The notes beneath the pieces are model-generated. The model saw only the letters and a list, made by a program, of their open reading frames with translations, searched no databases and was not told where the DNA came from. Positions 40,895-53,931 of a stretch of DNA of 64,000 bases are shown one piece after another. The stretch's first letter is position 1; every line of letters begins with the position of its first letter. The position numbers and the translations under genes are program-made. The stretch is from Streptomyces tailanensis. Its GTDB lineage: Bacteria > Actinomycetota > Actinomycetes > Streptomycetales > Streptomycetaceae. The stretch spans positions 1-64,000 of the forward strand of contig NZ_VTHJ01000029.1 of assembly GCF_008386495.1 (NCBI RefSeq). The letters run 5' to 3'.

Positions 40895-41070
40895 CACCGG
40901 TACCACCAGAGTCAACGCCTGGTTCCGGCGCACCGCCGGGGGGTACCGAGCCTCTCCTGGGCGCCCTGGACGACTACTGTCTGGCCAGCAGCGCTGGCGC
41001 GCTGGCCGGCCCGGCGTGGGGCGCCGCACCCCCGCCCTGGGCACCGGGACGACGCGAGGAACCACACCAC

Positions 41071-41772
41071 ATGAAGCACACCGGCGACGAGGCCGAGAAG
41101 ACCTGGTGCATCTCCGAGGTCGACATCTTCCGCGACCTGAGCGACGCGGAAATGGACGCCATCGCCACCGCGGCCCCGATGAAGACCTACAGCGCCGGAG
41201 AACTGCTCTACTCGCCCTCCCAGCCCTCCGAGGTGCTGTTCATCCTCAAGCAGGGCCGGGTGCGTATCTTCCGGGTCTCGGCCGACGGCCGCGCCCTGAC
41301 CTGCGCGATCATCAGCCCCGGCACCATCTTCGGCGAGATGGTGCTGCTCGGGCAGCGTATGTACGACAACTTCGCCGAAGCCCTCGACGACGTCACCGTC
41401 TGCGTGATGAGCCGCGCCGACGTCCACCGCTTCCTGCTGTCCGACGCCCGGATCTCCGCCCGCATCACCGAGATCCTCGGCCGCCGCCTGACCGACCTCG
41501 AACAGCGCCTGTCCGACAGCGTCTTCAAGTCCGTCCCGCAGCGGATCGCCACCACCCTGCTGACCCTCGCGGCCGAGACCCGCCCCAGGGTGCTCGGGAC
41601 CCACAGCCCGCAGATCGCTCTCACCCACCAGCAGATCGCCGCCCTGGCCGGCACCTCCCGCGAAACGTGCACCAAGGTGCTGCGCGACTTCGCCGACCAG
41701 CACCTGATCCGCCTCGCTCGGGGCCGCATCACCGTCCTCGCCCCGGAGCGGCTCGCCGACCACGCGGGCTGA
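41071..41772 (+). CDS. Crp/Fnr-family transcriptional regulator
   Basis: This 233-residue protein has a cyclic-nucleotide-like sensor domain (FRDLSDAEMDAIATAAPMKTY, then VLFILKQGRVRIFRVSADGR, then PGTIFGEMVLLGQ) followed by a dimer helix and a C-terminal winged helix with LTHQQIAALAGTSRETCTKVL (about residues 180-200). The Arg-Ser pair of cAMP-binding Crp is replaced (GEMVLLGQRMYDNF), so the ligand may differ, and no Fnr-type N-terminal Cys cluster is seen. ATG 41071 has GAGGA about 12 bases upstream. An alternative ATG at 40891 adds a low-complexity segment. Likely regulator of the radical SAM/redox cluster. Confidence 0.86.
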   Translation: MKHTGDEAEKTWCISEVDIFRDLSDAEMDAIATAAPMKTYSAGELLYSPSQPSEVLFILKQGRVRIFRVSADGRALTCAIISPGTIFGEMVLLGQRMYDNFAEALDDVTVCVMSRADVHRFLLSDARISARITEILGRRLTDLEQRLSDSVFKSVPQRIATTLLTLAAETRPRVLGTHSPQIALTHQQIAALAGTSRETCTKVLRDFADQHLIRLARGRITVLAPERLADHAG

Positions 41773-41864
41773 CGTCACCGGACCGTAAGCACCCACCCCA
41801 GCCCGTACCGCTCGCCGCCCGGCCTACAGTTCAGCCGACCCCGACCACCAGGAGCCGTCCCGTC

Positions 41865-42436
41865 ATGCGTGCCCGCCTGATCCTTCCCGGCCTGCTGGCC
41901 GCCACCGCGCTCACCCTCGTCGGCTGCGGCGCGGAGAAGTCCGCCTCCTCCAGCGGTACCGCAGAAGAGACCAGCCCCACGGCCTCCGGCTCCTCCTCGC
42001 CGGCGCAGGCAAGGGCCAGCACCGGGGCGGTCCCCGAGACGCTGCGGTTCACCGGCACGACCGTGGACGGTAAGCCGTTCGACGCGGCCATGCTGGCGGG
42101 CAAGCCCACCGTGTTGTGGTTCTGGGCGCCGTGGTGTCCCACCTGCAAGGCCCAGGGCCCCGAAACCGCCAAGGTCGCCGACCGGTTCCAGGGCCAGGCG
42201 CACGTGATCGGGGTGGCCGGACTCGACAAGACCAAGGCCATGAAGGACTTTGTCGCCGACACCGGGGTCGGCGCCTTCCCGAACCTGTCCGACGAGCCGG
42301 GGATATCTGGAAGAAGTTCGAGATCACCCAGCAGAGCGTCTACGTGATCCTCGACAAGGACGGCAAGACGGTCTTCACCGGCAGCCTCCCGGCCGGCAAG
42401 GGCCTCGCCGACAAGCTCAGCCCGCTCGTCGGCTGA
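41865..42436 (+). pseudogene. TlpA-like thioredoxin lipoprotein, single-base frameshift
   Basis: From ATG 41865 the frame encodes a signal with lipobox (ALTLVGCGAEK), a Ser/Thr-rich linker and a thioredoxin fold with active site VLWFWAPWCPTCKAQGP. After FPNLSDEPG at about 42302 the frame goes wrong, while the remainder (DIWKKFEITQQSVYVILDKD, then GKTVFTGSLPAGKGLADKL) continues in another register to 42436. One extra G in the run at 42299-42302 would restore a complete protein of about 190 residues. It is therefore either a recent frameshift or a homopolymer sequencing error. An intact protein would reduce or oxidise extracytoplasmic thiols with MauE/CcdA. Confidence 0.75.
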
Positions 42437-42442
42437 GCCGCC

Positions 42443-42580
42443 ATGTCCGATCTGCCGCTGGCCCTCGCTCTGACCGCGGGCATGCTCGCCGCCGTCAACC
42501 CCAGGGTGGTCGACGCGATACTGCGTCACCTGGGGCAGCACTTCGGCAACCCGTCCAGCAGCCATCCCTATAGCGATCAG
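42443..42580 (+). pseudogene. Chimera of CcdA and NifS-type cysteine desulfurase fragments
   Basis: The first 19 codons (MSDLPLALALTAGMLAAVNP) match the N-terminus of CcdA-type thiol transporters, which continue CGF after NP. Here the frame instead passes into RVVDAILRHLGQHFGNPSSS HPYS, the N-terminal pattern of class V cysteine desulfurases. The join falls at the shared Pro codon (about 42502). The matching part ends again at about 42573. This is the footprint of at least two deletions or misjoins. The open frame runs to 42997 but is meaningless beyond this point. Confidence 0.6.
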
Positions 42581-42729
42581 CCCGCCACGCGCTCGGACAA
42601 GCACGCGCGCAGGTCGAGGCCGGCCTCTTCGCCCTTCAGGGCGAAGAGCAAGTCAATTCTGCGAGCTTCCCTCGGGCTCTTCGGCAGCATGTCGAGCGCC
42701 GTGACGCAGTGTTGTAGCAGGTCAGGCAT
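42577..42729 (-). CDS. Small ORF of unknown function (50 aa), possibly a fragment
   Basis: MPDLLQHCVTALDMLPKSPR, then EARRIDLLFALKGEEAGLDL and a final RACLSERVAG. The composition is protein-like and helical, unlike shadow frames. The ribosome site is weak. Its stop lies where the cysteine-desulfurase similarity ends, so it is probably the C-terminal piece of a larger lost gene. A strong terminator follows on its upstream side. Confidence 0.35.
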   Translation of the reverse strand: MPDLLQHCVTALDMLPKSPREARRIDLLFALKGEEAGLDLRACLSERVAG

Positions 42730-42756
42730 TGTCCCGGACCGGGCCCGCCCGCAGAA

Positions 42757-42797
42757 GGCTGCCTCTTTCCCGCGGTTCCCGCGGGAAAGAGGCAGCC
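42757..42797. terminator. Perfect 19-bp hairpin after the SulP gene
   Basis: Bases 42757-42775 and 42779-42797 are exact reverse complements with a 3-base loop (ttc). It lies 5 bases beyond the stop of the leftward SulP gene and is the natural terminator. The design (perfect stem, 3-base loop) is the same as at 261-313. Confidence 0.8.
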
Positions 42798-42801
42798 GGC
42801 G

Positions 42802-44322
42802 TCAGTGGCCTGCGGTGAGCTGGCCGGCGAGGCGTTCGTGCATGTCCGCGCTGGGCTCGTTCAGGCCGATGATGGTGACCTTCTTGCCGCGCTGCTTGTA
42901 CTTGGTCTCGATGGCGTCCAGGGCGGCCACTGACGAGGCGTCCCAGATGTGGGCGTCGGTGAGGTCTATGACGACGTCGTCCGGGTCGTCCTTGTAGTTG
43001 AACTGGTAGACGAGGTCGTTGGACGAGGCGAAGAACAGCTCGCCGGTAACGGCGTAGACGACCTGGTTGCCGTCGGGGTCGACGACGCCGGAGACGTTGG
43101 CGAGGTGGGCGACGCGCTTGGCGAAGATCACCATGGCGGTGATGGAGCCGAGGACGACACCGATGGCGAGGTTGTGGGTGGCGACCACGGCGGCGACGGT
43201 GACGACCATGACGGTGGTCTCGCCCAGCGGCATCCGCTTCAGCGTCTTGGGCTGGATGGAGTGCCAGTCGAAGGTGGCGACCGACACCAGGATCATGACG
43301 GCGACCAGGGCGGCCATCGGAATGTCGGAGACGACAGGGCCGAAGGCGATGCACAGGACCATCAGGAAGGACCCGGCCAGGAAGGTCGACAGGCGGGTGC
43401 GGGCGCCGGACGTCTTCACGTTGATCATCGTCTGGCCGATCATGGCGCAGCCGCCCATGCCGCCGAAGAAGCCGGTGACGATGTTGGCGATGCCCTGGCC
43501 GATGGACTCACGGGTCTTGTTGGAGTGGGTGTCGGTGATGTCGTCTACCAGCTTGGCCGTCATCAGCGACTCCATCAGCCCGACCAGCGCGAAGGCGAAC
43601 GCGTACGGGGCGATGATGGTCAGCGTGTCCAGCGTGAACGGCACGTCGGGCAAGCCCGGGACCGGGAGCGAGGAGGGCAGGTCGCCCTTGTCGCCGACGT
43701 TGGGGACGGCGATGCCCGCGGCGACGGTGATGACCGTGAGGATGACGATGGAGACCAGGGGGGCCGGGACGGTCTTGGTGATCTTCGGGAAGAGCACCAT
43801 GAGCGCGAGGCCGCCGGCGATCAGCGGGTAGACGGCCCACGGGACGTCGTGCATCTCGGGCACCTGGGCCATGAAGATGAGGATGGCGAGGGCGTTGACG
43901 AAGCCCACCATCACCGAGCGCGGCACGAATCGCATCAGCTTGGCGACGCCCAGCGCACCGAGAACGATCTGGATGAGCCCGCCGAGGATGACGGCGGCGA
44001 TCAGGTAACCCAGGCCATAGTCGTGGTTGAGCGGCGCGATGACCAGCGCCATCGCGCCGGTCGCGGCGGAGATCATGGCCGTGCGGCCACCGACGAACGA
44101 GATCACCACAGCCATGGTGAACGACGCGAACAGGCCGATCGCCGGGTCGACCCCGGCGATGATCGAGAAGGAGATGGCCTCAGGGATCAGTGCCAGCGCC
44201 ACCACCAGACCGGCCAGCACCTCGGTGCGGAAGACCTTCGGGGAATCGAGCCAGTCGGGCTTGACTGTGCCCTTTGAAAAACGGGCGCGCAGCTTGGGGC
44301 CTGCGGACAGCAGTGAAGACAT
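42802..44322 (-). CDS. SulP-family transporter with STAS domain, divergent from MerR
   Basis: This 506-residue protein has about 10-12 helices, early EVLAGLVVALALIPEAISFS and AAGAMALV-like segments, the GGMGGCAMIGQTMINVKTSG region and a C-terminal STAS domain (DVVIDLTDAHIWDASSVAAL, about residue 455). It belongs to the SulP group that includes BicA-like bicarbonate transporters as well as sulfate permeases; the substrate is not provable here. ATG 44322 is preferred over the longer frame. MerR1 lies on the other side of a 396-base gap that contains one of the shared 26-bp dyads, so this transporter is the probable MerR1 target. Confidence 0.9.
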   Translation of the reverse strand: MSSLLSAGPKLRARFSKGTVKPDWLDSPKVFRTEVLAGLVVALALIPEAISFSIIAGVDPAIGLFASFTMAVVISFVGGRTAMISAATGAMALVIAPLNHDYGLGYLIAAVILGGLIQIVLGALGVAKLMRFVPRSVMVGFVNALAILIFMAQVPEMHDVPWAVYPLIAGGLALMVLFPKITKTVPAPLVSIVILTVITVAAGIAVPNVGDKGDLPSSLPVPGLPDVPFTLDTLTIIAPYAFAFALVGLMESLMTAKLVDDITDTHSNKTRESIGQGIANIVTGFFGGMGGCAMIGQTMINVKTSGARTRLSTFLAGSFLMVLCIAFGPVVSDIPMAALVAVMILVSVATFDWHSIQPKTLKRMPLGETTVMVVTVAAVVATHNLAIGVVLGSITAMVIFAKRVAHLANVSGVVDPDGNQVVYAVTGELFFASSNDLVYQFNYKDDPDDVVIDLTDAHIWDASSVAALDAIETKYKQRGKKVTIIGLNEPSADMHERLAGQLTAGH

Positions 44323-44578
44323 GCAACCGTTTCTGTTCGGGCGCGCACATCCACCTGCTGGATGTGCGCGCGTCGTACTCGACTCCACGCAAGGGGCGGA
44401 AGTCCCCGGCGGCCCGGCCTCGACGGGGGCCCTGCCGGATGGAGTGGCAGCCTTCGCGGCTGCCGGTCGGGCATCATTGCCCGGAAGTCTGCGGGTGCCG
44501 GCGGGGCCCGGTCGGGGCCCGCGCTCTGCCGGGGCCGCCCTGGCTGCGCCTTTACAGCGTGGCTGCCCTCGCAAAAAG

Positions 44579-44604
44579 ACTCTACCCTGACGTGAGGTGA
44601 GAGT
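44579..44604. promoter_or_regulatory. MerR-type dyad between sulP and merR1
   Basis: A 26-base site: ACTCTACCCTGAC against GTGAGGTGAGAGT, 10 of 13 positions symmetric about AC/GT. It matches the sites at 47046, 49319, 46070 and 50573. The gap (44323-44718) otherwise holds no gene. Confidence 0.65.
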
Positions 44605-44718
44605 GCGACCTGTGGCTTGTGAAATGCAGGTGAACACGGCCTCGGATCATGTGATTCCAGACACGTATGCTGGAGCACTTCGAACGTTCGAACGCGGCGG
44701 GACGCAGAAGGAGAAGGC

Positions 44719-45126
44719 GTGACGATGACTGAGCGGCAGATGCAGATCGGCGAGGTGGCCGAGCGGACCGGTTTGTCGCTGCGCACGATCCGCCACTACG
44801 AGGAAGTCGGCCTCGTCATCCCGTCCGCCCGCAGCAAGGGCGGCTTCCGTCTCTACACCGAGGCCGACGTCGAGCGCCTGATGGTCATCCGCCGCATGAA
44901 GCCGCTGGACTTCTCGCTGGAGGAGATGCGGGACCTGCTGGAGATCACCGACCGCATCGCCGACACCGACAAGCCGCCCGCCGGCGAGGAGATGGAGCGG
45001 CTGCGCGAGCGCCTCGACTCCTACCGGAAGGTGGCCGACGCCCGCTGCGAAACGCTGCGCGCCCAACTGATGGCCGCCGAGGACTTCGCCACCACGCTCC
45101 GCCGCAGGCTCGGCACAGGGAACTGA
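44719..45126 (+). CDS. MerR-family regulator 1
   Basis: This 135-residue protein has a winged helix at the start (QIGEVAERTGLSLRTIRHYE, EVGLVIPSARSKGGFRLYTE), a long dimerisation helix and a C-terminal segment with a single Cys (DARCETLRAQLMAAEDFATT). The short C-terminus with one Cys suggests sensing of a metal, thiol stress or another small cue. GTG 44719 has AGAAGGAG 5 bases upstream; ATG 44725 is also possible. It is closely related to MerR2 at 48835-49263, and dyads of the same shape lie beside both genes. It probably controls the divergent SulP gene. Confidence 0.88.
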   Translation: MTMTERQMQIGEVAERTGLSLRTIRHYEEVGLVIPSARSKGGFRLYTEADVERLMVIRRMKPLDFSLEEMRDLLEITDRIADTDKPPAGEEMERLRERLDSYRKVADARCETLRAQLMAAEDFATTLRRRLGTGN

Positions 45127-45128
45127 CA

Positions 45129-45163
45129 GCGGCGCGCGAGGGGACATTCTCCTCACGCGCCGC
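45129..45163. terminator. Hairpin between merR1 and a VOC gene fragment
   Basis: gcggcgcgcgagg (45129-45141) pairs with cctcacgcgccgc (45151-45163) with one mismatch. It lies just past the merR1 stop and between convergent genes. Confidence 0.65.
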
Positions 45164-45177
45164 CCGGCCGACTCCGC

Positions 45178-45405
45178 TTACGAGGCTGTCGGCTCACCGC
45201 TGCCGTAAGGACGGGTGATGACCTCCATGCCGTGTCCGGCGGGGTCCATGAAGTACATACCGCGCCCGCCGTCGTTGCGGTTGATCTCGCCAGGCTTCTT
45301 GCCGTGCGGATCGGTCCAGTACGTGATCTCGGCATCCTGGATCCGCTGGAAGATGGCGTCGAACTCACCCGGACGGTGACCGACACGCGATGCCGTGCCG
45401 TCATC
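45178..45405 (-). pseudogene. C-terminal fragment of a glyoxalase/VOC-family protein
   Basis: The frame reads DDGTASRVGHRPGEFDAIFQ, RIQDAEITYWTDPHGKKPGE, INRNDGGRGMYFMDPAGHGM and EVITRPYGS to the TAA at 45178. It matches the second half of single-domain VOC proteins, with the metal-site Glu in GMEVIT and the GRGMYFMDPAGH strand-turn. A TAG precedes it immediately and no start codon is available, so the N-terminal half is lost. Inactive remnant. Confidence 0.7.
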
Positions 45406-45480
45406 CTAAAGGGCCAATGCCCCGTCGCCCCAAGGTATTTCGTCGGTCAGAGGCTGCCCATACGTGGGCGGCTGCGTCCT

Positions 45481-45732
45481 TCAGTACGCCCACCACCGGC
45501 CCGAGTCGCTTTGCCGTACCCAGCACGCGATGCCGTCCTCGCCGATCACGCGCACGTGGGCGCTGTCGAGGCGATCGGCCTTGACGCTGCAGGCTCGGGA
45601 CCAGTTGCCGCGGGCGTCCACGTTCTCGAAGGCCACGTCCCCGGCGTCGGTGCGGGTGGCCCGTCCGGCGGTGAGGATCATCTCGGAGCCGTCGGTCAGA
45701 TTCACCATGAACGTTCCCATCGGCGTTCTCAT
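45481..45732 (-). CDS. Small protein A of a tandem paralogous pair (83 aa)
   Basis: The protein is beta-rich and ends GRWWAY. It aligns with the gene upstream (45797-46024): MVNLTDGSEMILTAGRATRT against MLQLAHGEDAVIEADAAGRT, and ENVDARGNWSRACSVKADRL against ERTDLHGNSERVHTYRVDTV; both end G-x-WW-x-Y. The start is ATG 45732, or more likely ATG 45720, which has GATGAG-like purines upstream. A 9-bp hairpin separates the pair. The function and family are unknown. It probably belongs to the MerR-dyad regulon through the site at 46059-46095. Confidence 0.65.
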   Translation of the reverse strand: MRTPMGTFMVNLTDGSEMILTAGRATRTDAGDVAFENVDARGNWSRACSVKADRLDSAHVRVIGEDGIACWVRQSDSGRWWAY

Positions 45733-45741
45733 CCTCTCGGC

Positions 45742-45769
45742 GTGGACTGCGCGTGAGCGTGCAGTCCAC
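45742..45769. terminator. Intergenic 9-bp hairpin in the small-protein pair
   Basis: gtggactgc (45742-45750) and gcagtccac (45761-45769) are exact reverse complements with a 10-base loop. It may be an attenuator, a processing site or an extra operator. Confidence 0.5.
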
Positions 45770-45796
45770 CCCTGCCCCGGCGGGCAGGCGGCCGCT

Positions 45797-46024
45797 TCAG
45801 TAGCACCACCAGGTGCCGTCGGGCGGCTGTGGAATCCAGTGGTAGCCGCCGCCGTCGGCGGGGCCGCGCCGGAAGACGGCCGTCACCGTGTCCACCCGGT
45901 ACGTGTGCACCCGCTCGGAGTTGCCGTGCAGGTCGGTGCGCTCCAGCACGATCTCGCCCGACGCGGTGCGCCCGGCGGCGTCCGCCTCGATCACGGCGTC
46001 CTCGCCGTGGGCCAGCTGCAGCAT
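45797..46024 (-). CDS. Small protein B of a tandem paralogous pair (75 aa)
   Basis: MLQLAHGEDAVIEADAAGRT, GEIVLERTDLHGNSERVHTY and a C-terminus IPQPPDGTWWCY. It is a paralogue of the next gene downstream (see the entry at 45481). It appears to be a small all-beta domain whose C-terminal aromatic cluster (WW-x-Y) is conserved in both copies. No Shine-Dalgarno sequence is seen before ATG 46024, so leaderless translation is possible. A MerR-type dyad lies about 35-70 bases upstream. Function unknown. Confidence 0.65.
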   Translation of the reverse strand: MLQLAHGEDAVIEADAAGRTASGEIVLERTDLHGNSERVHTYRVDTVTAVFRRGPADGGGYHWIPQPPDGTWWCY

Positions 46025-46058
46025 GGAGTTTGCCGCTTGTGAATTACGCCTACAGTTG

Positions 46059-46095
46059 GAGAGTCGTCTTACAGACTCTCACGTGTCAATAGAGT
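46059..46095. promoter_or_regulatory. Overlapping dyads upstream of the small-protein pair
   Basis: gagagtc (46059-46065) and gactctc (46074-46080) form a perfect inverted repeat with an 8-base spacer. A second, CACGTG-centred site (46070-46095) resembles the MerR dyads elsewhere. A TTGACA is present on the minus strand at about 46084-46089. Confidence 0.55.
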
Positions 46096-46196
46096 CTTGA
46101 CGAGCCAGCCGATCCACTGGACAGGTCCGGCCGGCGCGGCGGCGCCGGTAAGCCCTCCACTCGGCGGTGGTCGGGGCCGCCACACCCTTTCCCGCC

Positions 46197-47000
46197 TCAG
46201 CCGCCGCCTCGGCGGAGCTTCGCGGCCGGGTCGGAAGCGAGCCGGCCACGGGCGCCCCAGAAGTCGATGGCCCGCAGGATGGTGCCCAGGGCGCGCTGCG
46301 CGGCCGCACTGTTCCGGTCGCCCCAGTGCCCGTCGCACCAGGCGGCCAGGCTGTCGGCGGCGTCGGGTTCGTCCGGGACGCCGAGGCGCTCGTGCGAGCC
46401 GAGATGAGTGCCCAGCACCAGCATGGCGGTGTGATCGACCTCGCCGGAGGCTTCGGCGAGAAAGCCGGCGATCGCCTGCCGCACGGTCGGCACCACAGAG
46501 GGCGCCGCCGGGCGAGGACGGCTACGCGCGGCCCGGGGCTGCGCGGGAGGGCCCGCCGACCGCGCAGGACCCCTGGCCGGTTTCGCCGCCGCCGGGTCGG
46601 GTTGCGCGACGGGCCGCGGGGCCGGTGTGGCGGTCGGCGCCGGGCGCGGCGCGGGCCCCGTTGAGGGCCGCTCCCCGGGCCCGTACAGGCAGTTGGAGAC
46701 GTAGTCGCCGGGGACGGGCGTGTTCTGGGCGATGGAGGTCTCAAGCACCTCGGCGTCGCAGGTCCGACACAGCGACACCTCGCGCCAGCCGATGATCGAC
46801 AGCTGGGTGCCGCGCGAGTGGCGGGTCATCGACTGCGGCCTCTCCACGATGTCCTGGCCGCCGCAGCCCGCGCAGCGGGGAGCGCCCCGCATCCACTGGG
46901 CCCCGCACGACAGGCAGGTAACCCGGATGTCACCCTCGCAGGGCTCCCCGCGCAGCTCCTCGCCCTCCCCGCACGACGGGCACTCCGCCACACCCGCCAT
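46197..47000 (-). CDS. Four-CxxC zinc-ribbon protein with helical C-terminal domain
   Basis: This is a 267-residue protein. Zinc-ribbon pairs CPSC (residue 8), CLSC (about 29), CAGC (about 43) and CRTC (about 78) lie in the first 80 residues. A Pro/Ala-rich linker of about 70 residues follows, then a helical domain (VRQAIAGFLAEASGEVDHTA and AQRALGTILRAIDFWGARG). The ATG at 47000 has GGGAGGGAAGG upstream. It could bind nucleic acid or act as an adaptor. The 26-bp dyad at 47046-47071 lies just upstream, placing it in the putative MerR regulon. Family not recognised. Confidence 0.7.
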   Translation of the reverse strand: MAGVAECPSCGEGEELRGEPCEGDIRVTCLSCGAQWMRGAPRCAGCGGQDIVERPQSMTRHSRGTQLSIIGWREVSLCRTCDAEVLETSIAQNTPVPGDYVSNCLYGPGERPSTGPAPRPAPTATPAPRPVAQPDPAAAKPARGPARSAGPPAQPRAARSRPRPAAPSVVPTVRQAIAGFLAEASGEVDHTAMLVLGTHLGSHERLGVPDEPDAADSLAAWCDGHWGDRNSAAAQRALGTILRAIDFWGARGRLASDPAAKLRRGGG

Positions 47001-47045
47001 CGGCCTTCCCTCCCGGCTGCCTCATCAGACTGCGCACGCCATTCA

Positions 47046-47071
47046 AGTCTACCTTCACGTGAGTGTAGACT
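47046..47071. promoter_or_regulatory. MerR-type dyad upstream of the zinc-ribbon gene
   Basis: AGTCTACCTTCAC (47046-47058) against GTGAGTGTAGACT (47059-47071): 11 of 13 positions symmetric, centre CACGTG. It lies 46 bases upstream of ATG 47000 (minus strand). Confidence 0.7.
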
Positions 47072-47236
47072 CCGGAGTGGATGATCAACGGCCGAGCATG
47101 CCGGTGGTGACGCGGCAGGAGGTCGGCGCCCGCACACCCCTGGCGTTCAGGTCCGGCCGGGTCCGCAGGACAACCTGTCCACCGTCGCGCGGGCGGCCGG
47201 CGGGAAGTGATGGAGACCCTGGCGCCGCGACATGCC

Positions 47237-48838
47237 CTATTCGTGTGCGGCGAGGAGGTGCTCGAGCCGGGCGTCGGGAAACTCCCGCTCGAAGGAGCCG
47301 GCCTGCCAGCGGTCCGGGAACAGGGCGAGGACGGCCTTGTCGCGGATACGGGTCAGCGCCTCGCCCTTGACCAGCCGAGAGCGGTTGAGCGCCTCACCTC
47401 CGGCCGTGTCCGTCGCCCGCGCCAGATGGTAGGGCAGCATCTCCAGCCGTACAGGCGCGGAGAACTCGCCCGCCATCCGCGCGGAAACGACATCGAACTG
47501 CATCGGCCCCACCGCGGCGAGCACCGGCGCCTGATCGCCGCGCACATCCGACACCAGGACCTGCACCACGCCCTCCTCATCCAACTGGGCGATGCCGCGC
47601 CGGAACTGCTTGGAGCGGCCGATGTCCACGGGGCGCACGACGGCGAAGTGCTCCGGGGCGAAGGTCGGCATGGACGGAAAGAGGGCGGGCGGCCCGTCGT
47701 AGAGGGTGTCGCCCACGCGCAGGGCGGCGGCGTTGACCAGGCCGACCACGTCACCGGGGTAGGCGGTGTCGACCATGGAGCGATCCTGTCCGAAGACGCT
47801 GTGCGCGTACTTGGTGGCGAACGGCTTGCCGGAGGCGGCGCGGGTGACGGTCGCTCCCCGTTCGAACATGCCCGAGCACACCCGCAGGAACGCGATCCGG
47901 TCGCGGTGCGAGGGGTCCATGTTCGCCTGCACCTTGAACACCAGTCCGGAGAAGGGCGCGTCGACCGGGCGGCTGCCGCCACCCTCCAGCCCACGGGGGC
48001 CGGGCGGTGGGGCGAGGTCGACGACGGCGTCCAGAAGCAGCCGAACGCCGATGTTGGACAGGGCGGCCCCGAAGAAGACCGGCGTGGAGGTACCGGCCAG
48101 GAACGAGGGGCGGTCGAACTCAGCCCCGTCCGCCCGCAGGAGTTCCAGCTCGTCGGTGGCCTGCGCCCAGTCGGCGCCCTCCTCCAAGGCGGCCTGCTCG
48201 GCGGGGATCGGCTCCTCGACGGCTTCGTGGGCACCGCCGGGCGCCCGGGTGTAGCGCAGCATCCGGCCGGGTTCGCGTACGTCGATCAGTCCGCGCAGGT
48301 ATCCGGCGGTGCCGACCGGCCAGGTGATGGGGGTGGGCCTGAGGCGGAACTCGCGCTCGATCTCGTCGAGCAGCTCCAGCGCCTCGCGCCCCGGGCGGTC
48401 CCACTTGTTGACGAACGTGATCACCGGAATGCCGCGGTGGCGGCAGACGTCGAAGAGCTTGCGGGTCTGCTCCTCCAGGCCCTTGGCCGCGTCGATGAGC
48501 ATCACCGCGCAGTCCACCGCCGCCAGCACCCGGTAGGTGTCCTCGGAGAAGTCCGCGTGCCCAGGAGTGTCCAGCAGATTCAGCACGCAGTCGCGGTGGG
48601 CGAACTGCAGCACCGCCGACGTGACGGAGATGCCGCGGGCCTTCTCCATCTCCATCCAGTCCGAAGACACCCCGCGGCGCCCGGACTTGCCGTGCACCGC
48701 ACCCGCCTCGGTTATCGCGTGCGCATGCAGGGCGAGGGCCTCGGTGAGCGTGGACTTGCCCGCGTCCGGATGGCTGATCACCGCGAACGTCCGCCGCCGG
48801 GCGGCCTCGGAGGCCGCCCATTCACTGGTGGCGTTCAC
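47237..48838 (-). CDS. prfC: Peptide chain release factor 3 (GTPase)
   Basis: This 533-residue RF3 recycles RF1/RF2 from the ribosome using GTP. Motifs seen: G1 SHPDAGKSTLTEALAL (about residue 22), switch II LLDTPGHADFSEDTYR (about 88), G4 TFVNKWDRPG (about 141), then an EF-Tu-like domain 2 (FSGLVFKVQANMDPSHRDRI) and the RF3-specific C-terminal region (GPMQFDVVSARM). The start GTG 48838 overlaps the MerR2 stop (GTGA), so it is translationally coupled to a regulator, unusual for RF3. RF3 also acts in ribosome quality control and rescue of stalled complexes, which may explain stress regulation. Confidence 0.93.
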   Translation of the reverse strand: MNATSEWAASEAARRRTFAVISHPDAGKSTLTEALALHAHAITEAGAVHGKSGRRGVSSDWMEMEKARGISVTSAVLQFAHRDCVLNLLDTPGHADFSEDTYRVLAAVDCAVMLIDAAKGLEEQTRKLFDVCRHRGIPVITFVNKWDRPGREALELLDEIEREFRLRPTPITWPVGTAGYLRGLIDVREPGRMLRYTRAPGGAHEAVEEPIPAEQAALEEGADWAQATDELELLRADGAEFDRPSFLAGTSTPVFFGAALSNIGVRLLLDAVVDLAPPPGPRGLEGGGSRPVDAPFSGLVFKVQANMDPSHRDRIAFLRVCSGMFERGATVTRAASGKPFATKYAHSVFGQDRSMVDTAYPGDVVGLVNAAALRVGDTLYDGPPALFPSMPTFAPEHFAVVRPVDIGRSKQFRRGIAQLDEEGVVQVLVSDVRGDQAPVLAAVGPMQFDVVSARMAGEFSAPVRLEMLPYHLARATDTAGGEALNRSRLVKGEALTRIRDKAVLALFPDRWQAGSFEREFPDARLEHLLAAHE

Positions 48839-49263
48839 CGCACCGCCTTCACGGCCGTCGTGGGGGCATCAAGGAGCTTGGCCAGGTGCCCGTGCAGGGA
48901 GTGGGCGAATTCCTCCGCCGACGCCGGCTCCCGGCGCAGGTCCACGCACCGTGCATCGGCCTCCACCCAGTACTTCCGCAACATCGCCACCAGTTCCTCG
49001 TGCGCTTCCTCGTCGTTCTCGGGCAAGGGCCCGCCCGCGTCGGGCAGCCGCTCCAGGACGTCCGGCAGTGCCCGTACGTCCTCCAGGCAGAGGCCGAGCG
49101 GGCGCATCCGGCGCACCAGTGCCAGCCTGCGCACCTCCGCCTCCGTATAGAGGCGGAAGCCGCCCGTACTGCGCTCGCTGGGCGCGACCACGCCGACGTC
49201 CTCGTAGTGGCGGATCGTGCGCAGCGACAAGCCCGTGCGCTCGGACAGCTCGCCGATCCGCAT
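48835..49263 (-). CDS. MerR-family regulator 2, coupled to prfC
   Basis: About 142 residues: winged helix RIGELSERTGLSLRTIRHYE then DVGVVAPSERSTGGFRLYTE, a dimer helix and a C-terminus with one Cys (EADARCVDLRREPASAEEF). It is clearly a paralogue of MerR1 (44719-45126). ATG 49263 has GGAAGG upstream with short spacing; GTG 49278 adds five residues. A near-perfect 38-bp palindrome lies 41-93 bases upstream, the expected autoregulatory site. Overlaps prfC by 4 bases. Confidence 0.88.
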   Translation of the reverse strand: MRIGELSERTGLSLRTIRHYEDVGVVAPSERSTGGFRLYTEAEVRRLALVRRMRPLGLCLEDVRALPDVLERLPDAGGPLPENDEEAHEELVAMLRKYWVEADARCVDLRREPASAEEFAHSLHGHLAKLLDAPTTAVKAVR

Positions 49264-49318
49264 CAGCCTTCCGCCCACGGCTCCACCACCTCGCGTCGCC
49301 CGCCCGGCTCCCTTGCCT

Positions 49319-49356
49319 ACTACAAACTTACCCTGACGTTAGGGTAGGTTTGTAGT
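49319..49356. promoter_or_regulatory. 38-bp near-perfect palindrome upstream of merR2-prfC
   Basis: The 19-base arms 49319-49337 and 49338-49356 are complementary at 17 positions. The inner part (ACTTACCCTGAC / GTTAGGGTAGGT) matches the dyads at 44579 and 47046. It is the strongest of the set. Confidence 0.8.
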
Positions 49357-49396
49357 CGCTGCAACGAGATGGCCTGACAGGCCGCCGTCGTTGCCA

Positions 49397-49434
49397 GGCG
49401 GCGCCGCCCTCATCCCCCGAGGGGCGGCGCCGCC
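49397..49434. terminator. 13-bp GC-rich hairpin
   Basis: ggcggcgccgccc (49397-49409) and gggcggcgccgcc (49422-49434) are exact complements around a 12-base loop. It lies between the MerR2 operator and the pfk remnant and may have ended a transcript entering from the right or left. Confidence 0.55.
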
Positions 49435-49505
49435 CCTTGACCGCCAATGGGCATGAGCCGGCGCGCCGCCGGCAGCCCGATCCCGCTCAGGAAGCGGCAC
49501 CGCAA

Positions 49506-49849
49506 AGCGTCTTGGTGTCCTCGCGTCCGGTGGCGACAGCCGCGGCCTGAACGCCGTCATCCGGTCCGTCGCGCATTGCGCCGTCGTCGACCACGGCGAC
49601 GAGGTCATCGGCTTCCGGGACGGCTGGAAGGGCCTCGTGGAGTGCGACTACCTCAAGCTCGACCTCGACGCGGTGAGCGGCGTCCTGGCTCGCGGCGGCA
49701 CCATCCTCGGCTCCTCCCGGTTCCAGCCTGCGCATCTGCGTGACGGTGCGGAGCGGGCCAAGGGGCATCTCCGTAAAGCAGTTGCGGGACCGGCCCGGCA
49801 CGCAGCCACAATCGGCGCAGCACACGTCCCGGCATGTGGAGGAGCATAC
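49506..49849 (+). pseudogene. 5' fragment of a 6-phosphofructokinase gene
   Basis: The frame reads KRLGVLASGGDSRGLNAVIR, then GFRDGWKGLVECDYLKLDLD and GILARGGTILG-like SGVLARGGTILGSSRFQP. It matches the first 100 or so residues of PfkA-type ATP-phosphofructokinases (GGD nucleotide loop, G-F-x-DGW, GTxLGSSR). The start codon is lost (AKR in place of M-x-R), and the similarity ends at about 49795 where the frame continues into the next gene. The rest of pfkA, including the catalytic TIDND region, is missing. It is a remnant of a third or secondary phosphofructokinase. Confidence 0.7.
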
Positions 49850-50491
49850 GTGATCAGCCCTGCCTTCCCTCGTATCGCACGATCTGATGTGCCCCTCATC
49901 GTCATCGGCACCCGCTACGCAGGCGGTCCCGACCACCAGCGACGGATGGCTGACGCCGATGCCCACGAGTTCGACCGCGGCCCCTGGGCCGGCGGACGTG
50001 CCGTCATCACCTGGTTTCTGAGCATGGACGGCGAGACGTTGCTGACCTGTGCCCAATGGGACAGCGACGCGGCATACGACGCGTACCTGCGAGGCAACGG
50101 CCCGGCGACCCCGCTCGCCGGACCGCCCGGCTACCGGCTGTACCGCAGCCTGGCCGAGGAGGGCGAGACCCGCACCCCCGGCTGCCTGATCACCGCAGCC
50201 TTCGACGTGGACGGACCCGAGCGGCAGCGGTACTTCACCGACGCCGTCATCGCGGCCCAGCCCGAGGAGGGCGGGCACCCGGGAGCGATCTCGGCGCACT
50301 TCCTGCTGAGCACCGACGGAACCCGGGTGCTCCTCTACACGGAATGGACCAGCACCGAGGCCCACCAGGAGGCGGCCGAGGCGGGCGATCACGACAAGGG
50401 ACACGACATCTTCTCCAGCACACCCGGCGTACGGCTCACCCACGGCAACCGCTACCACCTCCACCGCGCGCTGTCCCGTCCGCTGCCGTAG
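49850..50491 (+). CDS. Two-domain antibiotic-biosynthesis-monooxygenase-like protein
   Basis: About 213 residues with two ABM-type halves: residues about 10-105 (VPLIVIGTRYAGGPDHQRRM to GPPGYRLYRSL, with WDSDAAYDAYLRG) and about 115-205 (TAAFDVDGPERQRYFTDAVI to GVRLTHGNRYHLHRAL, with EWTSTEAHQEA). GTG 49850 is chosen because GGAGGAG lies 5 bases upstream; the open frame further upstream is the phosphofructokinase remnant, not this protein. A role in quinone or secondary-metabolite oxidation, or heme handling, is possible but unproven. Confidence 0.75.
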   Translation: MISPAFPRIARSDVPLIVIGTRYAGGPDHQRRMADADAHEFDRGPWAGGRAVITWFLSMDGETLLTCAQWDSDAAYDAYLRGNGPATPLAGPPGYRLYRSLAEEGETRTPGCLITAAFDVDGPERQRYFTDAVIAAQPEEGGHPGAISAHFLLSTDGTRVLLYTEWTSTEAHQEAAEAGDHDKGHDIFSSTPGVRLTHGNRYHLHRALSRPLP

Positions 50492-50572
50492 CGGCCCCGC
50501 TCCGACGGCTGAACGCCTCGGCCTCGCCGTGCTGAACCGGCTGGTTGGGCAGCCAATGAATCACCTCGGCAG

Positions 50573-50598
50573 ACTCTCCGGTAACGTCAGAGTATGAG
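50573..50598. promoter_or_regulatory. MerR-type dyad overlapping the RNase J start
   Basis: Left half ACTCTCCGGTAAC (50573-50585) matches the regulon half-sites; right half GTCAGAGTATGAG (50586-50598) is weaker and contains the ATG at 50594. Confidence 0.45.
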
Positions 50599-52279
50599 TC
50601 ATCCGCATCCAGAACTGAAAGCCGCCCCTCCCCTGCCCAAGGGAGGGCTGCGGGTCGTCGCCCTGGGCGGCCTGGGTGAGATCGGCCGCAACATGACCGT
50701 CTTCGAGCACGCCGGCAAACTCCTCGTCGTCGACTGCGGCGTCCTGTTCCCCGAAGAGACCCAGCCCGGCGTGGACGTGATCCTGCCGGACTTCACCTCG
50801 ATCCGGGACCGCCTGGACGACATCGTGGCCGTAGTGCTCACCCACGGCCACGAGGACCACATCGGCGGCGTGCCGTACCTGCTGCGCGAGCGCTCCGACA
50901 TCCCCGTCGTGGGCTCGAAGCTGACGCTGGCGTTCCTGGAGGCCAAGCTCAAGGAGCACGGCATCCGGCCACGCACGGTGCGGGTGCGTGAGGGCGACCG
51001 GCGCACCTTCGGCCCCTTCGACTGCGAGTTCATCGCGGTCAACCACTCCATCCCGGACGGCCTCGCGGTCGCGATCCGCACCGGCGCCGGAATGGTGCTG
51101 CACACCGGCGACTTCAAGATGGACCAGTTTCCGCTGGACGACCGCATCACGGACCTGCGCGCCTTCGCCCGCCTCGGCGAGGAGGGCGTTGACCTGTTCC
51201 TGACCGATTCCACCAACGCCGAGGTGCCCGGCTTCACCACGTCCGAGCGCGAGTTGAACCCGGCGATCGAGCAGGTGCTGCGGACCGCCCCGCGCCGGGT
51301 GATCGTCTCCAGCTTCGCCAGCCATGTGCACCGCATCCAGCAGGTCCTGGACGCCGCGCACCAGCACGGCCGCAAGGTCGCCTTCGTGGGCCGCTCCATG
51401 GTCCGCAACATGGGCATCGCCCGCGAACTCGGGTACCTGCAGGTGCCCTCGGGCCTGGTCGTGAGCACCAAGGAAATGGAGAAGCTCCCCGACCACAAGA
51501 TCACCCTGGTGTGCACCGGATCCCAGGGCGAGCCCATGGCGGCTCTCTCCCGGATGGCCAACCGCGACCACGTGATCCGCATCGGCAAGGGCGACACCGT
51601 CCTGCTCGCCAGCTCCCTCATCCCGGGCAACGAGAACGCCATCTACCGGGTGATCAACGGGCTGACCCGCTGGGGCGCCCACGTCGTCCACAAGGGCAAC
51701 GCCAAGGTCCACGTCTCCGGGCACGCCAGCGCCGGTGAACTCGTCTACTGCTACAACATCGTCAAACCCCGCAATGTCATGCCCGTCCACGGCGAATGGC
51801 GCCATCTGCGGGCCAACGGCGACCTCGCCATCCGCACCGGACTCGATCCCGACCGGGTGGTCATCGCCGAGGACGGCGTCGTCGTCGACCTCGTCGACGG
51901 CCGCGCCTCGATCACCGGCAAGGTGCCCGCGGGCAACGTCTACGTGGACGGCATGGAAGTCGGCGGCGCCACCGAAGCCTCCCTCAAGGACCGCCTCACC
52001 CTCGCCGCGGAAGGCGTCGTCACGGTGGTGGCCCTCGTCGACGCCGACACCGGCGCGCTGGCCGAAGCCCCCGACTTCCTGGCGCGCGGTTTCGTCCACG
52101 ACGACACCACCTTCGAACCCGTCATCCCGGTGATCGAGAAGACCTTGGCCACCGCGGCCCAGGAAGGCGTCGGCGACGCGCACCAGCTCGAACAGCTGAT
52201 CGCCCGCGCCGTGGGCAACTGGGCGTTCCGTACCCACCGCCGCAGGCCGCTGATCATCCCGGTCGTCATCGACGCCTGA
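50594..52279 (+). CDS. rnj: Ribonuclease J
   Basis: This 561-residue metallo-beta-lactamase/beta-CASP ribonuclease carries the metal motif LTHGHEDHIGGVPYLL (about residues 79-94), HTGDFKMDQ (about 175), the beta-CASP region FLTDSTNAEVPGFT and VSSFASHVHRIQ, VCTGSQGEPM, and the late VSGHASAGEL and PVHGEWRH His residues. It provides 5'-3' exonuclease and endonuclease activity for mRNA turnover and rRNA maturation. No Shine-Dalgarno sequence precedes ATG 50594; a MerR-like dyad overlaps the start, so leaderless and stress-controlled expression is possible. It may be a second RNase J rather than the housekeeping copy. Confidence 0.93.
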   Translation: MSHPHPELKAAPPLPKGGLRVVALGGLGEIGRNMTVFEHAGKLLVVDCGVLFPEETQPGVDVILPDFTSIRDRLDDIVAVVLTHGHEDHIGGVPYLLRERSDIPVVGSKLTLAFLEAKLKEHGIRPRTVRVREGDRRTFGPFDCEFIAVNHSIPDGLAVAIRTGAGMVLHTGDFKMDQFPLDDRITDLRAFARLGEEGVDLFLTDSTNAEVPGFTTSERELNPAIEQVLRTAPRRVIVSSFASHVHRIQQVLDAAHQHGRKVAFVGRSMVRNMGIARELGYLQVPSGLVVSTKEMEKLPDHKITLVCTGSQGEPMAALSRMANRDHVIRIGKGDTVLLASSLIPGNENAIYRVINGLTRWGAHVVHKGNAKVHVSGHASAGELVYCYNIVKPRNVMPVHGEWRHLRANGDLAIRTGLDPDRVVIAEDGVVVDLVDGRASITGKVPAGNVYVDGMEVGGATEASLKDRLTLAAEGVVTVVALVDADTGALAEAPDFLARGFVHDDTTFEPVIPVIEKTLATAAQEGVGDAHQLEQLIARAVGNWAFRTHRRRPLIIPVVIDA

Positions 52280-52357
52280 CAGAGCCGCCACCCCAACTCC
52301 CCATTCCCACGCCGGCAGCGGCACTCATGCATCCACGAACGTCAGAAGGGTGAGCGG

Positions 52358-53086
52358 ATGGGCCTGCGCTTCGAGGAGATCGACTGGCAACCGACACCGA
52401 TCGGTGAGATCAGTCTGCGTCGGCGCCGCCACCCGGTCTCGGGGGACGACGTGTACGAGGTGAAGCTCGGCGACGAGTTCCTGATGTCCAGCCTCTTCAC
52501 CGCCGGCGAGATCGCGCTCGCGGAACTCGCCCTGGCGAAACTGCCGGACACCGAACTGGACGTAGCCGTCGGCGGACTCGGGCTCGGCCACACCGCCCAG
52601 GCGGCCCTGGACGACCCCCGGGGGCGCTCGCTGACCGTGATCGACGCGCTCGCCGAAGTCATCGACTGGCACCAGCGGCACTTGGTACCCCTCGGAGCCC
52701 GGCTGTCCTCGGACGCCCGCTGCCGCCTGGTGCACGGAGACTTCTTCGCGCTGGCCGCCGACCCCTGCGGTCTGGACCCGAAAGAGCCGGGCCGTCGCTT
52801 CCACGCCATCCTGCTGGACGTCGACCACTCGCCGCGCCATGTGCTCCACCCCCGGCACGCGGCGCTCTACCAGCCTGCCGGGCTTCGCGCCCTCGCCGCT
52901 CACCTCCACCCCGGCGGGGTGTTCGCCCTGTGGTCGAACGACCCGCCCGACGAGCAGTTCACCTCCGCGCTCACGGAGGTCTTCGCACAAGCAGCGGCCC
53001 ATGTCGTCGACTTCGACAACCCCCTGCAAGGCGGCACCTCGGCCAACACCGTCTACCTCGCCGGCACGGCACCGGACACGCCGTAG
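52358..53086 (+). CDS. Spermidine-synthase-like (methyltransferase-fold) protein
   Basis: This 242-residue protein has an N-terminal beta region (LRFEEIDWQPTPIGEISLRR, then VYEVKLGDEFLMSSLFTAGE) and then a Rossmann fold with ELDVAVGGLGLGHTAQAALD (cofactor loop), RSLTVIDALAEVIDWH (acidic end), RLVHGDFFALAADP and ILLDVDHSPRHVLHPRHAAL. The pattern is that of polyamine-synthase-like proteins common in actinobacteria. The classical gate-keeper residues are not all clear, so true putrescine aminopropyl transfer is uncertain. It follows RNase J after 78 bases. The upstream word AACGTCAGA also occurs before rnj. Confidence 0.78.
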   Translation: MGLRFEEIDWQPTPIGEISLRRRRHPVSGDDVYEVKLGDEFLMSSLFTAGEIALAELALAKLPDTELDVAVGGLGLGHTAQAALDDPRGRSLTVIDALAEVIDWHQRHLVPLGARLSSDARCRLVHGDFFALAADPCGLDPKEPGRRFHAILLDVDHSPRHVLHPRHAALYQPAGLRALAAHLHPGGVFALWSNDPPDEQFTSALTEVFAQAAAHVVDFDNPLQGGTSANTVYLAGTAPDTP

Positions 53087-53126
53087 GACGACGCCTCGAC
53101 CGGATCCGGCGATCCGGCGCGGCCAC

Positions 53127-53732
53127 TCAGGTACGGCAGAACAGCCTCTCCAGGTGGTAGCCCAGCACCTTCCGGGCGGACTCCTGCGTGCGCCGGCCGA
53201 CCAGGACGCTCGTACCGAGGCCGTGGCTGAGGGCGAGCAGGCGTACGGACTCGACGCTCGGGTCCGCGCGGGCGTCGAGGACACCATCCGTCTGCGCCTG
53301 CCGCAGCAGATCGGCAAGCTGACCCTCCAAGCGCTCAGGGCCCTCGGCGAAGGACTCGGCGGCGAGTTCGGGATCGGTCATCGCCAGCATCGCGCACGAG
53401 GTCCACAGGATGTGGAAGGCGCGGCTCGCCTCGTCGGTGGGCAGGGCCTCTTCGAGCAGGGCCTCGACAAGGGCCCGCGGGGACGGCGGGGACCGCTGGG
53501 CGGCCAGGCGGGCTGCCCAGCGCTCGTGACTTTGCTGTTCCAGATGCCGCAACGCGGCCAGCATCAGCTGAGCCTTGGTCTCGAAGTAGTACTGCACCAG
53601 CCGCACCGACACTCCGGCCTCGGCCGCGACCACGCGCATGGTCGCGGCGTGCACGCCGTCACGGGTGGCGACGCGGACCAGACCCTCGATGATCTGAGCC
53701 CGGCGCTGCGCATGGTCAGCGGTCCTCGGCAC
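53127..53732 (-). CDS. TetR-family repressor of the MFS pump
   Basis: This 201-residue protein has a helix-turn-helix at about residues 31-51 (AATMRVVAAEAGVSVRLVQY, then YFETKAQL). The C-terminal domain is of the TetR_C type with a ligand pocket. GTG 53732 has AAAGGAGG about 6 bases upstream; the longer open frame is rejected. Divergent from an MFS transporter with a 21-bp operator between them, the usual drug-efflux switch. Confidence 0.88.
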   Translation of the reverse strand: MPRTADHAQRRAQIIEGLVRVATRDGVHAATMRVVAAEAGVSVRLVQYYFETKAQLMLAALRHLEQQSHERWAARLAAQRSPPSPRALVEALLEEALPTDEASRAFHILWTSCAMLAMTDPELAAESFAEGPERLEGQLADLLRQAQTDGVLDARADPSVESVRLLALSHGLGTSVLVGRRTQESARKVLGYHLERLFCRT

Positions 53733-53757
53733 GCTCGCCCTCCTTTCCCCAAAGCCA

Positions 53758-53778
53758 TTTTGATACGGCGTACCATAA
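53758..53778. promoter_or_regulatory. TetR operator between tetR and the MFS gene
   Basis: ttttgatacg (53758-53767), centre g, cgtaccataa (53769-53778): 8 of 10 positions symmetric. It lies 25 bases upstream of the TetR start and near the MFS promoter. Confidence 0.65.
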
Positions 53779-53931
53779 CGTTGCCGGATCCGATGGAGGT
53801 AGCCACGCGCCCGATGAGGAGTGGGATGACGTGAAGCGGCACAGCGCAGCGCTGAAGGGCGTGTCGGAAGTCCCTGGCATCGGACGGCGCCGCGCGGGCT
53901 GGGTGCTCGTTCTGGCCTGCGCCGCTCAGTC

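What the first reader, a model, noticed from the sequence alone, without database searches (positions are those of the whole stretch)
44579..50598. Putative MerR stress regulon joining SulP, small paralogous proteins, a zinc-ribbon protein, release factor 3 and RNase J
Five non-coding sites in 6 kb share a dyad of shape (A/G)(C/G)TCTACC-x-T-x-AC/GT-x-A-x-GGTAGA: 44579-44604, 46070-46095, 47046-47071, 49319-49356 (17/19 symmetric) and a weaker one at 50573-50598 on the rnj start. They stand before sulP/merR1, the 75/83-aa pair, the zinc-ribbon gene, merR2-prfC and rnj. Two close MerR paralogues lie inside the set. A word AACGTCAGA recurs before rnj and before the spermidine-synthase-like gene (52339-52347). 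A MerR switch over translation termination and RNA decay would be unusual; I do not know of a described equivalent.
Basis: partly seen in the sequence, partly recalled or inferred. Interest (0 to 1): 0.78.

Follow-up and report, generated by a model that had tools for sequence, protein, structure and literature searches.

The report
MerR regulon linking transporter to RF3
A small family of MerR-type switch proteins appears to control both an anion transporter and an optional protein-synthesis release factor (RF3) in actinobacteria, through one shared DNA site; three of the five sites reported are real and two are not.

Summary
Three of the five reported dyads are real and specific: S1 (before sulP/merR1), S3 (before the zinc-ribbon gene) and S4 (before merR2-prfC). 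They are the three best matches to their core in the 10-Mb genome. S2 is at chance level. S5 is the RNase J paralogue's own promoter: it persists in 12 of 12 genomes fetched that lack this MerR family, with the dyad core lost in 9. The same dyad marks SulP-MerR pairs across the genus and recurs in other actinomycete families, in several beside RF3. RF3 is rare in this genus (14 of 295 genomes); 10 of those 14 carry the dyad before the RF3 unit. Four genomes with one detected MerR of this family have dyads before both SulP/merR and RF3, so one regulator would have to serve both. At RF3/merR2 promoters the dyad fills a 19-bp gap between -35 and -10, the MerR hallmark. Best reading: MerR1 and MerR2 read a common operator and co-regulate an SLC26Dg-like SulP transporter, RF3 and a zinc-ribbon protein. 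Control of RNase J is not supported. The signal is unknown; no binding was measured. My literature searches found no description of this regulon.

The parts
42802..44322 (-). sulP: SLC26/SulP anion transporter with STAS domain
   Evidence: Pfam Sulfate_transp and STAS above cut-off; nearest solved structure 5da0, E 1.1e-156 (that 5da0 is SLC26Dg of Deinococcus geothermalis is recalled)
44323..44581 (-). sulP leader (about 259 nt from dyad to ATG) with a hairpin next to the start codon
   Evidence: 18 aligned leaders; terminal hairpin with changes on both sides kept in several pairs; no Rfam match
44579..44604 (.). S1: dyad, core at 44582-44601; -10-like TAGAGT points to sulP
   Evidence: 2 mismatches; TAnnnT at the edge facing away from merR in 25 of 25 sites of this type
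44719..45126 (+). merR1
   Evidence: Pfam MerR_1; MerR of the sulP-dyad-merR pair found in many genomes of the genus
45481..45732 (-). 83-aa small protein, paralogue of the 75-aa one (cluster member by synteny only; no supported dyad here)
   Evidence: conserved in cluster loci
45797..46024 (-). 75-aa small protein (cluster member by synteny only); in relatives it follows a DUF2795 gene that has its own dyad and is absent here
46197..47000 (-). zinc-ribbon protein gene (four CxxC)
   Evidence: relatives next to SulP-MerR (L236) or RF3 (L240) in other families
47046..47071 (.). S3: dyad, core at 47049-47068, 48 bp before the zinc-ribbon gene; -10-like TAGACT toward it
   Evidence: 1 mismatch; dyad at the same place in L046, L047, L048, L050, and with 3 mismatches in L287
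47237..48838 (-). prfC: peptide chain release factor 3
   Evidence: NCBIfam PRK00741 607.7 bits against cut-off 473; only RF3 of this genome at E <= 1e-60
48835..49266 (-). merR2, overlapping prfC by 4 bases (operon)
   Evidence: Pfam MerR_1; a MerR2 relative upstream of RF3 in 9 of 14 RF3-bearing genomes of the genus sample
49319..49356 (.). S4: 17/19 dyad, core at 49328-49347; toward merR2-prfC it lies between a weak -35 (49350-49355, CTACAA) and a -10 (49325-49330, TAAGTT), spacing 19
   Evidence: best site in the genome; promoter layout
50594..52279 (+). RNase J paralogue: linked neighbour, NOT shown to be in the regulon (S5 is its own promoter)

Best explanation
Two paralogous MerR proteins (MerR1, MerR2) bind one shared operator, CTACCCTnACGTnAGGGTAG, placed between the -35 and -10 of their target promoters. 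They switch a SulP/SLC26 anion transporter (S1), a zinc-ribbon protein (S3) and the merR2-prfC operon (S4) together. The likely ancestral unit is a divergent sulP-merR pair with one dyad. RF3, which most genomes sampled in this genus lack, was placed under the same regulator, either directly or with its own MerR copy. When the regulator is in its inducing state (signal unknown), it would remodel the 19-bp-spaced promoters and raise transporter, zinc-ribbon protein and RF3 together. Shown by sequence: sites, conservation, placement, genomes with one detected MerR. Inferred: protein binding, activation, co-induction, ancestry, any benefit for translation.
For: Best three core matches in 10 Mb are S4, S3, S1. 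In 199 genus genomes 70 (own included) have a site with at most 1 mismatch; the backward control hits 4 genomes. Of the 75 non-own sites listed there, 70 lie 23-148 bp upstream of a MerR of this family, 2 stand before SulP and 3 before zinc-ribbon or RF3 genes. RF3 is in 14 of 295 genus genomes at E <= 1e-60; 10 of the 14 have the dyad before the RF3 unit (0-2 mismatches in nine, 3 in G145), with a MerR2 relative in 9 of them. Four genomes in which only one MerR of this family was found (E <= 1e-15) have dyads before both SulP/merR and RF3: L084 (1 and 2 mismatches), L085 (2 and 0), L095 (1 and 2), G424 (0 and 1). Outside the genus, 7 of 39 site-bearing genomes have a site within 6 kb of RF3, in four other families; MerR-RF3 operons with a dyad in L209, L211, L212. 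In 12 RF3/merR2 promoters TTG occurs at spacing 19 in 8 and at no other spacing from 14 to 23 in any; TAnnnT in 11. In 66 sites upstream of MerR ORFs TAnnnT stands at the edge facing away from merR (the SulP side in SulP loci) in 66.
Against: No binding or expression data. On the side facing away from merR no TTG -35 is seen at any spacing (0 of 66), the merR-facing side of the same sites has TAnnnT in only 2 of 66 (both at RF3-type loci, L035 and L076), and the zinc-ribbon promoters lack a TTG -35 too (0 of 4). So the full MerR layout is shown only for the merR2/RF3 class, whose 12 sequences are mostly orthologues and not independent; the window's own S4 -35 is weak. Four of 14 RF3-bearing genus genomes have no dyad there (G023, G113, G259, and G135, where only about 150 bp before the contig end could be seen). 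73 of 80 RF3 loci from the wider scan have no dyad (3 or fewer mismatches) together with SulP or MerR, some of them cut by contig ends. Nine of 30 non-genus site loci show none of the genes of this set. Genome completeness is not given for L084, L085 and L095, so a second MerR could be missing. The search pattern came from the finding itself; the independent test is its behaviour in other genomes.
Confidence: 0.8

Rival explanations
1. Two separate autoregulated modules: MerR1 controls only sulP and MerR2 controls only merR2-prfC. The sites look alike only because the two MerRs are duplicates, and neighbourhood is chance.
For: Each MerR sits next to a site; MerR1 and MerR2 are paralogues; operators of the two classes differ at the edges.
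Against: Genomes with one detected MerR of the family have dyads at both SulP/merR and RF3 (L084, L085, L095, G424), and S3 stands before a gene with no MerR of its own.
Confidence: 0.13
2. The first reader's five-site regulon, including control of the RNase J paralogue through S5 and of the 75/83-aa pair through S2.
For: S5 block is conserved in 8 loci; S2 is degenerate but a similar weak element lies at the corresponding place in L046, L048 and L050; DUF2795 genes before the 75-aa gene have better dyads (2-3 mismatches) in relatives.
Against: The S5 block is kept in 12 of 12 fetched RNase J paralogues of genomes without this MerR family, with ACGT changed to CCGT (8) or GCGT (1) in 9, and ACGT is also lost in 3 of the 8 loci; its TAnnnT stands 6 nt before ATG, not beyond a dyad. 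S2 is at chance level in the window.
Confidence: 0.05
3. The dyads are not MerR operators but conserved transcription terminators or RNA hairpins.
For: They are inverted repeats in intergenic DNA.
Against: A -10-like TAnnnT at the dyad edge and TTG at exactly 19 bp in the merR2/RF3 class; 70 of the 75 listed genus sites stand upstream of MerR ORFs. No terminator scan was run.
Confidence: 0.02

Closest known systems
MerR family regulators (CueR, CadR, ZntR, SoxR, NmlR)
   Same: MerR_1 winged-helix domain; short C-terminal tail; dyad in a 19-bp -35/-10 spacer at the merR2/RF3 promoters
   Different: Scores far below the curated cut-off of every NCBIfam subfamily listed. No conserved pair of metal-binding Cys: the one recurrent Cys (position 110) is present in 34 of 77 relatives. 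Regulon contains a translation factor.
SLC26Dg-like SulP transporter (PDB 5da0)
   Same: E 1.1e-156 over 485 residues to 5da0; STAS domain
   Different: Substrate here untested; below the NCBIfam cut-offs of SulP, DauA and BicA
Release factor 3 (PrfC)
   Same: Passes the equivalog cut-off
   Different: An optional gene in this genus, behind a MerR-type promoter. Margus et al. 2007 (PMC1780047, passages read) list Streptomyces among groups without RF3.
RNase J of Streptomyces
   Same: Passes the RNase J subfamily cut-off TIGR00649; 70% identical to the genome's second copy
   Different: An accessory paralogue with its own conserved start-proximal promoter block

Membership tests
MerR family regulator with its promoter | N-terminal MerR winged-helix domain | tested here: met
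   MerR_1 69.7 and 62.5 bits against cut-off 21.6
MerR family regulator with its promoter | Dyad within a 19-20 bp spacer between -35 and -10 | tested here: met
   merR2/RF3 class: TTG at 19 bp in 8 of 12, 0 at other spacings 14-23; TAnnnT 11 of 12; the window's own -35 is weak
MerR family regulator with its promoter | Same layout at S1 and S3 | tested here: inconclusive
   TAnnnT present (66 of 66 facing away from merR, 4 of 4 zinc-ribbon) but no TTG -35
MerR family regulator with its promoter | Binds and remodels the promoter in response to a signal | not testable with these tools
   needs EMSA, footprinting, transcription assay
Named MerR subfamilies (CueR, CadR-PbrR, ZntR, MerR, SoxR, NmlR) | Curated NCBIfam cut-off | tested here: not met
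   MerR1 best 72.2 bits against 147.4 (CueR), MerR2 best 61.3 against 151.45 (CadR-PbrR); the others listed are below too
Release factor 3 | Equivalog cut-off and RF3 C-terminal domain | tested here: met
   607.7 against 473; RF3_C 118.9 against 40.1
SulP subfamily (TIGR00815) | Curated cut-off | tested here: not met
   234.7 against 380.45; Pfam Sulfate_transp met
S5 as a member of the dyad set | Conserved palindromic core tied to presence of the MerR | tested here: not met
   kept in 12 of 12 fetched genomes without the MerR family; ACGT lost in 9 of 12

The most novel reading that the evidence does not exclude
A MerR-family sensor makes translation termination conditional. In a genus that normally does without RF3, RF3 is brought in on demand together with an anion transporter and a zinc-ribbon protein that may act at the ribosome. 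The widespread form of the SulP leader carries a short upstream reading frame ending Cys-Pro-Pro-stop, a context expected to end translation slowly, so RF3 supply and SulP expression could be coupled at that stop codon.
Probability: 0.12. Interest if true: 0.85.

Novelty: new variant of a known kind. Interest (0 to 1): 0.62.

Why it matters
RF3 is missing from many bacteria and it is unclear when it is useful. A genus where RF3 is optional and, in 10 of 14 genomes that have it, sits behind a MerR-type dyad shared with one transporter gives a direct way to ask under which condition RF3 pays: find the signal of the MerR. The operator is exact enough to be searched in any actinomycete, and genomes with one detected MerR and dyads at both SulP and RF3 allow clean deletion tests. 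It also gives a regulatory context for the SLC26Dg-like SulP transporters of actinomycetes, for which I found none in the searches listed.

Tried and rejected
S5 as a MerR site: rejected. S2: not above chance in the window. A similar weak element sits at the corresponding place in L046, L048 and L050, beside a 255-288-aa gene that the window lacks; left as inconclusive. AACGTCAGA as a shared operator: not pursued beyond the count.

Metal or single-Cys sensing by the MerRs: not supported. Subfamily cut-offs are not met and Cys110 is present in only 34 of 77 relatives.

I first thought G281 (L287) held only MerR2; the genome search shows two MerR1 copies elsewhere in it, so it is not used as a single-regulator case.

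Structure of the zinc-ribbon protein: weak model (pLDDT 57.7), no match with E <= 0.001. Structure of the 75-aa protein: good all-beta model (pLDDT 83.7) but no match with E <= 0.001. Rfam: nothing in window 40000-54000 at gathering scores, and only three hits at E 1.5-2.4, all below gathering scores, in six relatives' loci.

In one search runs of N in L063 were counted as matches by a script fault; the later scripts count N as a mismatch, and no N stretch enters any number above.

Literature: searches listed no paper that I could recognise as describing this regulon or operator. Only listings were seen, plus passages of PMC1780047. The library lacks most subscription journals.
Full report
What is there. 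Other families were assigned. The zinc-ribbon protein has four CxxC pairs, all eight Cys invariant in 7 aligned sequences including the window's. RF3 is the only one found in this genome. The RNase J gene is a paralogue, 70% identical to a second copy on another contig. The genus is inferred to be Streptomyces because the nearest named relatives of this RF3 are Streptomyces.

Are the dyads real? Three are. S1, S3 and S4 match CTACCNTNACGTNANGGTAG with 2, 1 and 1 mismatches. The 64-kb window has no other site with 3 or fewer, and 60 Markov-1 simulations gave none with 2 or fewer. In the 10.0-Mb genome the 18-bp core with up to 2 mismatches occurs 6 times and the best three are these; the reversed pattern occurs 4 times, so the other three are at background level. 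S2 (6 mismatches) and S5 (4) do not stand out.

Conservation. With at most 1 mismatch, 70 of 199 genus genomes (own included) have a site and 4 have one of the reversed control (its list of places was cut). Of the 75 non-own sites listed, 70 lie 23-148 bp upstream of a MerR1-family ORF. Two stand before SulP (L033, L041). The other three stand before the zinc-ribbon gene (G030, G097) or between RNase J and RF3 (G119). The divergent sulP-dyad-merR pair is therefore the core. In loci with the cluster (L046, L047, L048, L050, L287) S1, S3 and S4 equivalents are kept, though two S3 equivalents have 2 mismatches and one 3. L046, L047, L048 and L050 show a further dyad (2-3 mismatches) upstream of the 75-aa gene, in L046 before a DUF2795 gene that the window has lost.

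RF3 and the dyad. Only 14 of 295 genus genomes have RF3, which fits Margus et al. 2007 (PMC1780047, passages read), who name Streptomyces among groups without RF3. In 10 of these 14 the RF3 unit has a dyad upstream (0-2 mismatches in nine, 3 in G145), through a merR2 relative in 9 and directly in G119; in G023, G113, G135 and G259 there is none, but for G135 only about 150 bp could be seen. A scan of named genomes kept the best 80 of 593 RF3 loci; in 7 of them SulP/MerR, RF3 and a dyad occur together (L084, L085, L086, L089, L095, L096, L119; L086 and L096 have weaker dyads with 3 mismatches), and in 73 not, some cut by contig ends. In an even class sample, 39 non-genus genomes have a site with at most 1 mismatch; 26 of these have RF3, and in 7 a site lies within 6 kb of it, in four families. 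L209, L211 and L212 are MerR-RF3 operons behind a dyad. L240 adds the zinc-ribbon, DUF2795 and spermidine-synthase-like relatives, and L236 has a zinc-ribbon gene beside SulP-MerR. Of 30 non-genus site loci inspected, 21 hold a match to SulP, MerR, RF3 or the spermidine-synthase-like gene and 9 hold none.

One regulator, several promoters. I counted MerR1-family ORFs (E <= 1e-15) in 7 genomes that carry dyads at SulP/merR and at RF3 or its operon. Four have exactly one: Streptomyces sp. JJ38 (L084), S. pini (L085), Nonomuraea ceibae (L095; its RF3 dyad overlaps the presumed RF3 start) and G424. The others have 2 (G576, L089) or 3 (G119, G281). In the four, one MerR must act on both promoters if the dyads work at all and no second copy lies in a sequence gap; completeness is not given for the three named genomes.

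Promoter layout. In 12 merR2 or RF3 promoters, mostly orthologues of one another, TAnnnT starts at the dyad edge in 11, and a TTG -35 stands exactly 19 bp upstream in 8; at every other spacing from 14 to 23 the count is 0 of 12. This is the MerR arrangement (family knowledge, recalled). The window's S4 has TAAGTT and a weak -35 (CTACAA). In 66 sites upstream of MerR ORFs, TAnnnT stands at the edge facing away from merR, the SulP side in SulP loci, in 66, but with no TTG -35 at any spacing; toward merR it is present in 2 of 66, L035 and L076, both at RF3-type loci. The zinc-ribbon promoters have TAnnnT in 4 of 4 and no TTG. So the layout is complete only for the merR2/RF3 class.

S5 explained. 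The rnj paralogue carries a conserved block CTCCGGTAnCGTnAGGGTATG at its start in 8 loci; the housekeeping rnj does not. By, 23 genomes of the sample carry the paralogue but no MerR1-family ORF at E <= 1e-24; I fetched the region from 12 of them, none of which has a dyad with at most 1 mismatch. All 12 keep a TAnnnT (TACCGT 8, TAACGT 3, TAGCGT 1) 6 nt before the ATG, so the ACGT core is lost in 9. S5 is therefore the gene's own promoter, probably leaderless (inference), and independent of the MerR.

What it does. SulP is nearest to PDB 5da0 (recalled as SLC26Dg, a proton-coupled fumarate transporter). The MerRs fall far below the curated cut-offs for metal, redox and NmlR types, and their recurrent Cys is in 34 of 77 relatives, so I cannot name the signal. 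The most likely mechanism is MerR-type promoter remodelling that raises SulP, zinc-ribbon protein and RF3 together. Site and placement are shown; binding and induction are inferred.

A second layer. The 64 sulP leaders collected (124-344 nt between dyad and start) are conserved in parts. In 18 leaders of the window type, RNAalifold finds a hairpin next to the start codon with changes on both sides in several pairs. Of the 41 leaders of other types, 30 hold a ribosome-binding site and a short frame ending C-P-P-stop, C-S-P-stop or C-P-stop. Among the 22 distinct frames of 14 codons, Cys is 22/22, the last Pro 22/22 and TGA 21/22. Changes are spread evenly over codon positions (35, 38, 27) and more are non-synonymous (59) than synonymous (21), so an RNA element rather than a peptide remains possible. 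The window's leader lacks this frame.

Verdict. A real and conserved MerR regulon, not described in the papers I could search, that puts RF3 under a transporter's regulator; three of five sites confirmed; RNase J and the 75/83-aa pair not supported as targets in this genome.

Noticed in passing
L019, L039, L051, L053-L056, L185 and others: sulP leaders of the widespread type (not in the window): Short upstream frame with a strong ribosome-binding site, typically MREPMTPxAAACPP-stop, 115-202 nt before sulP, in 30 of 41 leaders. Cys-Pro-Pro-stop is nearly invariant; could be a stalling leader peptide or an RNA element.
   Followed up: partly
window 44323-44581 (-): Conserved structured sulP leader: nearly invariant CGGGCnATGATGCCCGA hairpin and a terminal hairpin with compensatory changes beside the ATG in 18 aligned leaders; no Rfam family.
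   Followed up: partly
G000:C161:26549-26857 (L003, L015): A third MerR1 relative (63%) with an internal stop and a truncated N-terminal part: looks like a decayed copy.
   Followed up: no
L046 13898-14104, L050 7874-8083, L240 7460-7741: DUF2795-type gene with a dyad upstream in relatives, in two families; absent from the window, where S2 lies near the place.
   Followed up: partly
L046 12610-13476, L050 8536-9303: 255-288-aa protein (no Pfam hit for the L046 copy) between the zinc-ribbon and DUF2795 genes, absent from the window.
   Followed up: no
L048 15658; L046 13592: Further dyads with 2 and 3 mismatches in cluster loci, behind the RNase J gene and between two small genes; not assigned to a target.
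   Followed up: no
G090:C1 about 1.85 Mb and 7.63 Mb (L047, L048): The cluster is present twice in one genome, in opposite orientation; in one copy the 75-aa gene, zinc-ribbon gene and SulP match only in part.
   Followed up: no
window 50594-52279 and relatives: A second RNase J, at least 92% identical to the window's, is at 55 places in 52 of the 199 genus genomes, own included: a common accessory RNase J with a conserved start-proximal promoter.
   Followed up: partly
window 25370, 26513, 50583, 52338: AACGTCAGA occurs 4 times, 0.36 expected, none of 100 shuffles reached 4; two copies are far from this locus. Unexplained.
   Followed up: no
L200, L201, L204-L208, L213, L220: Sites with at most 1 mismatch in other families with none of the genes of this set matched within about 1.5 kb; other regulon members or chance.
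   Followed up: no
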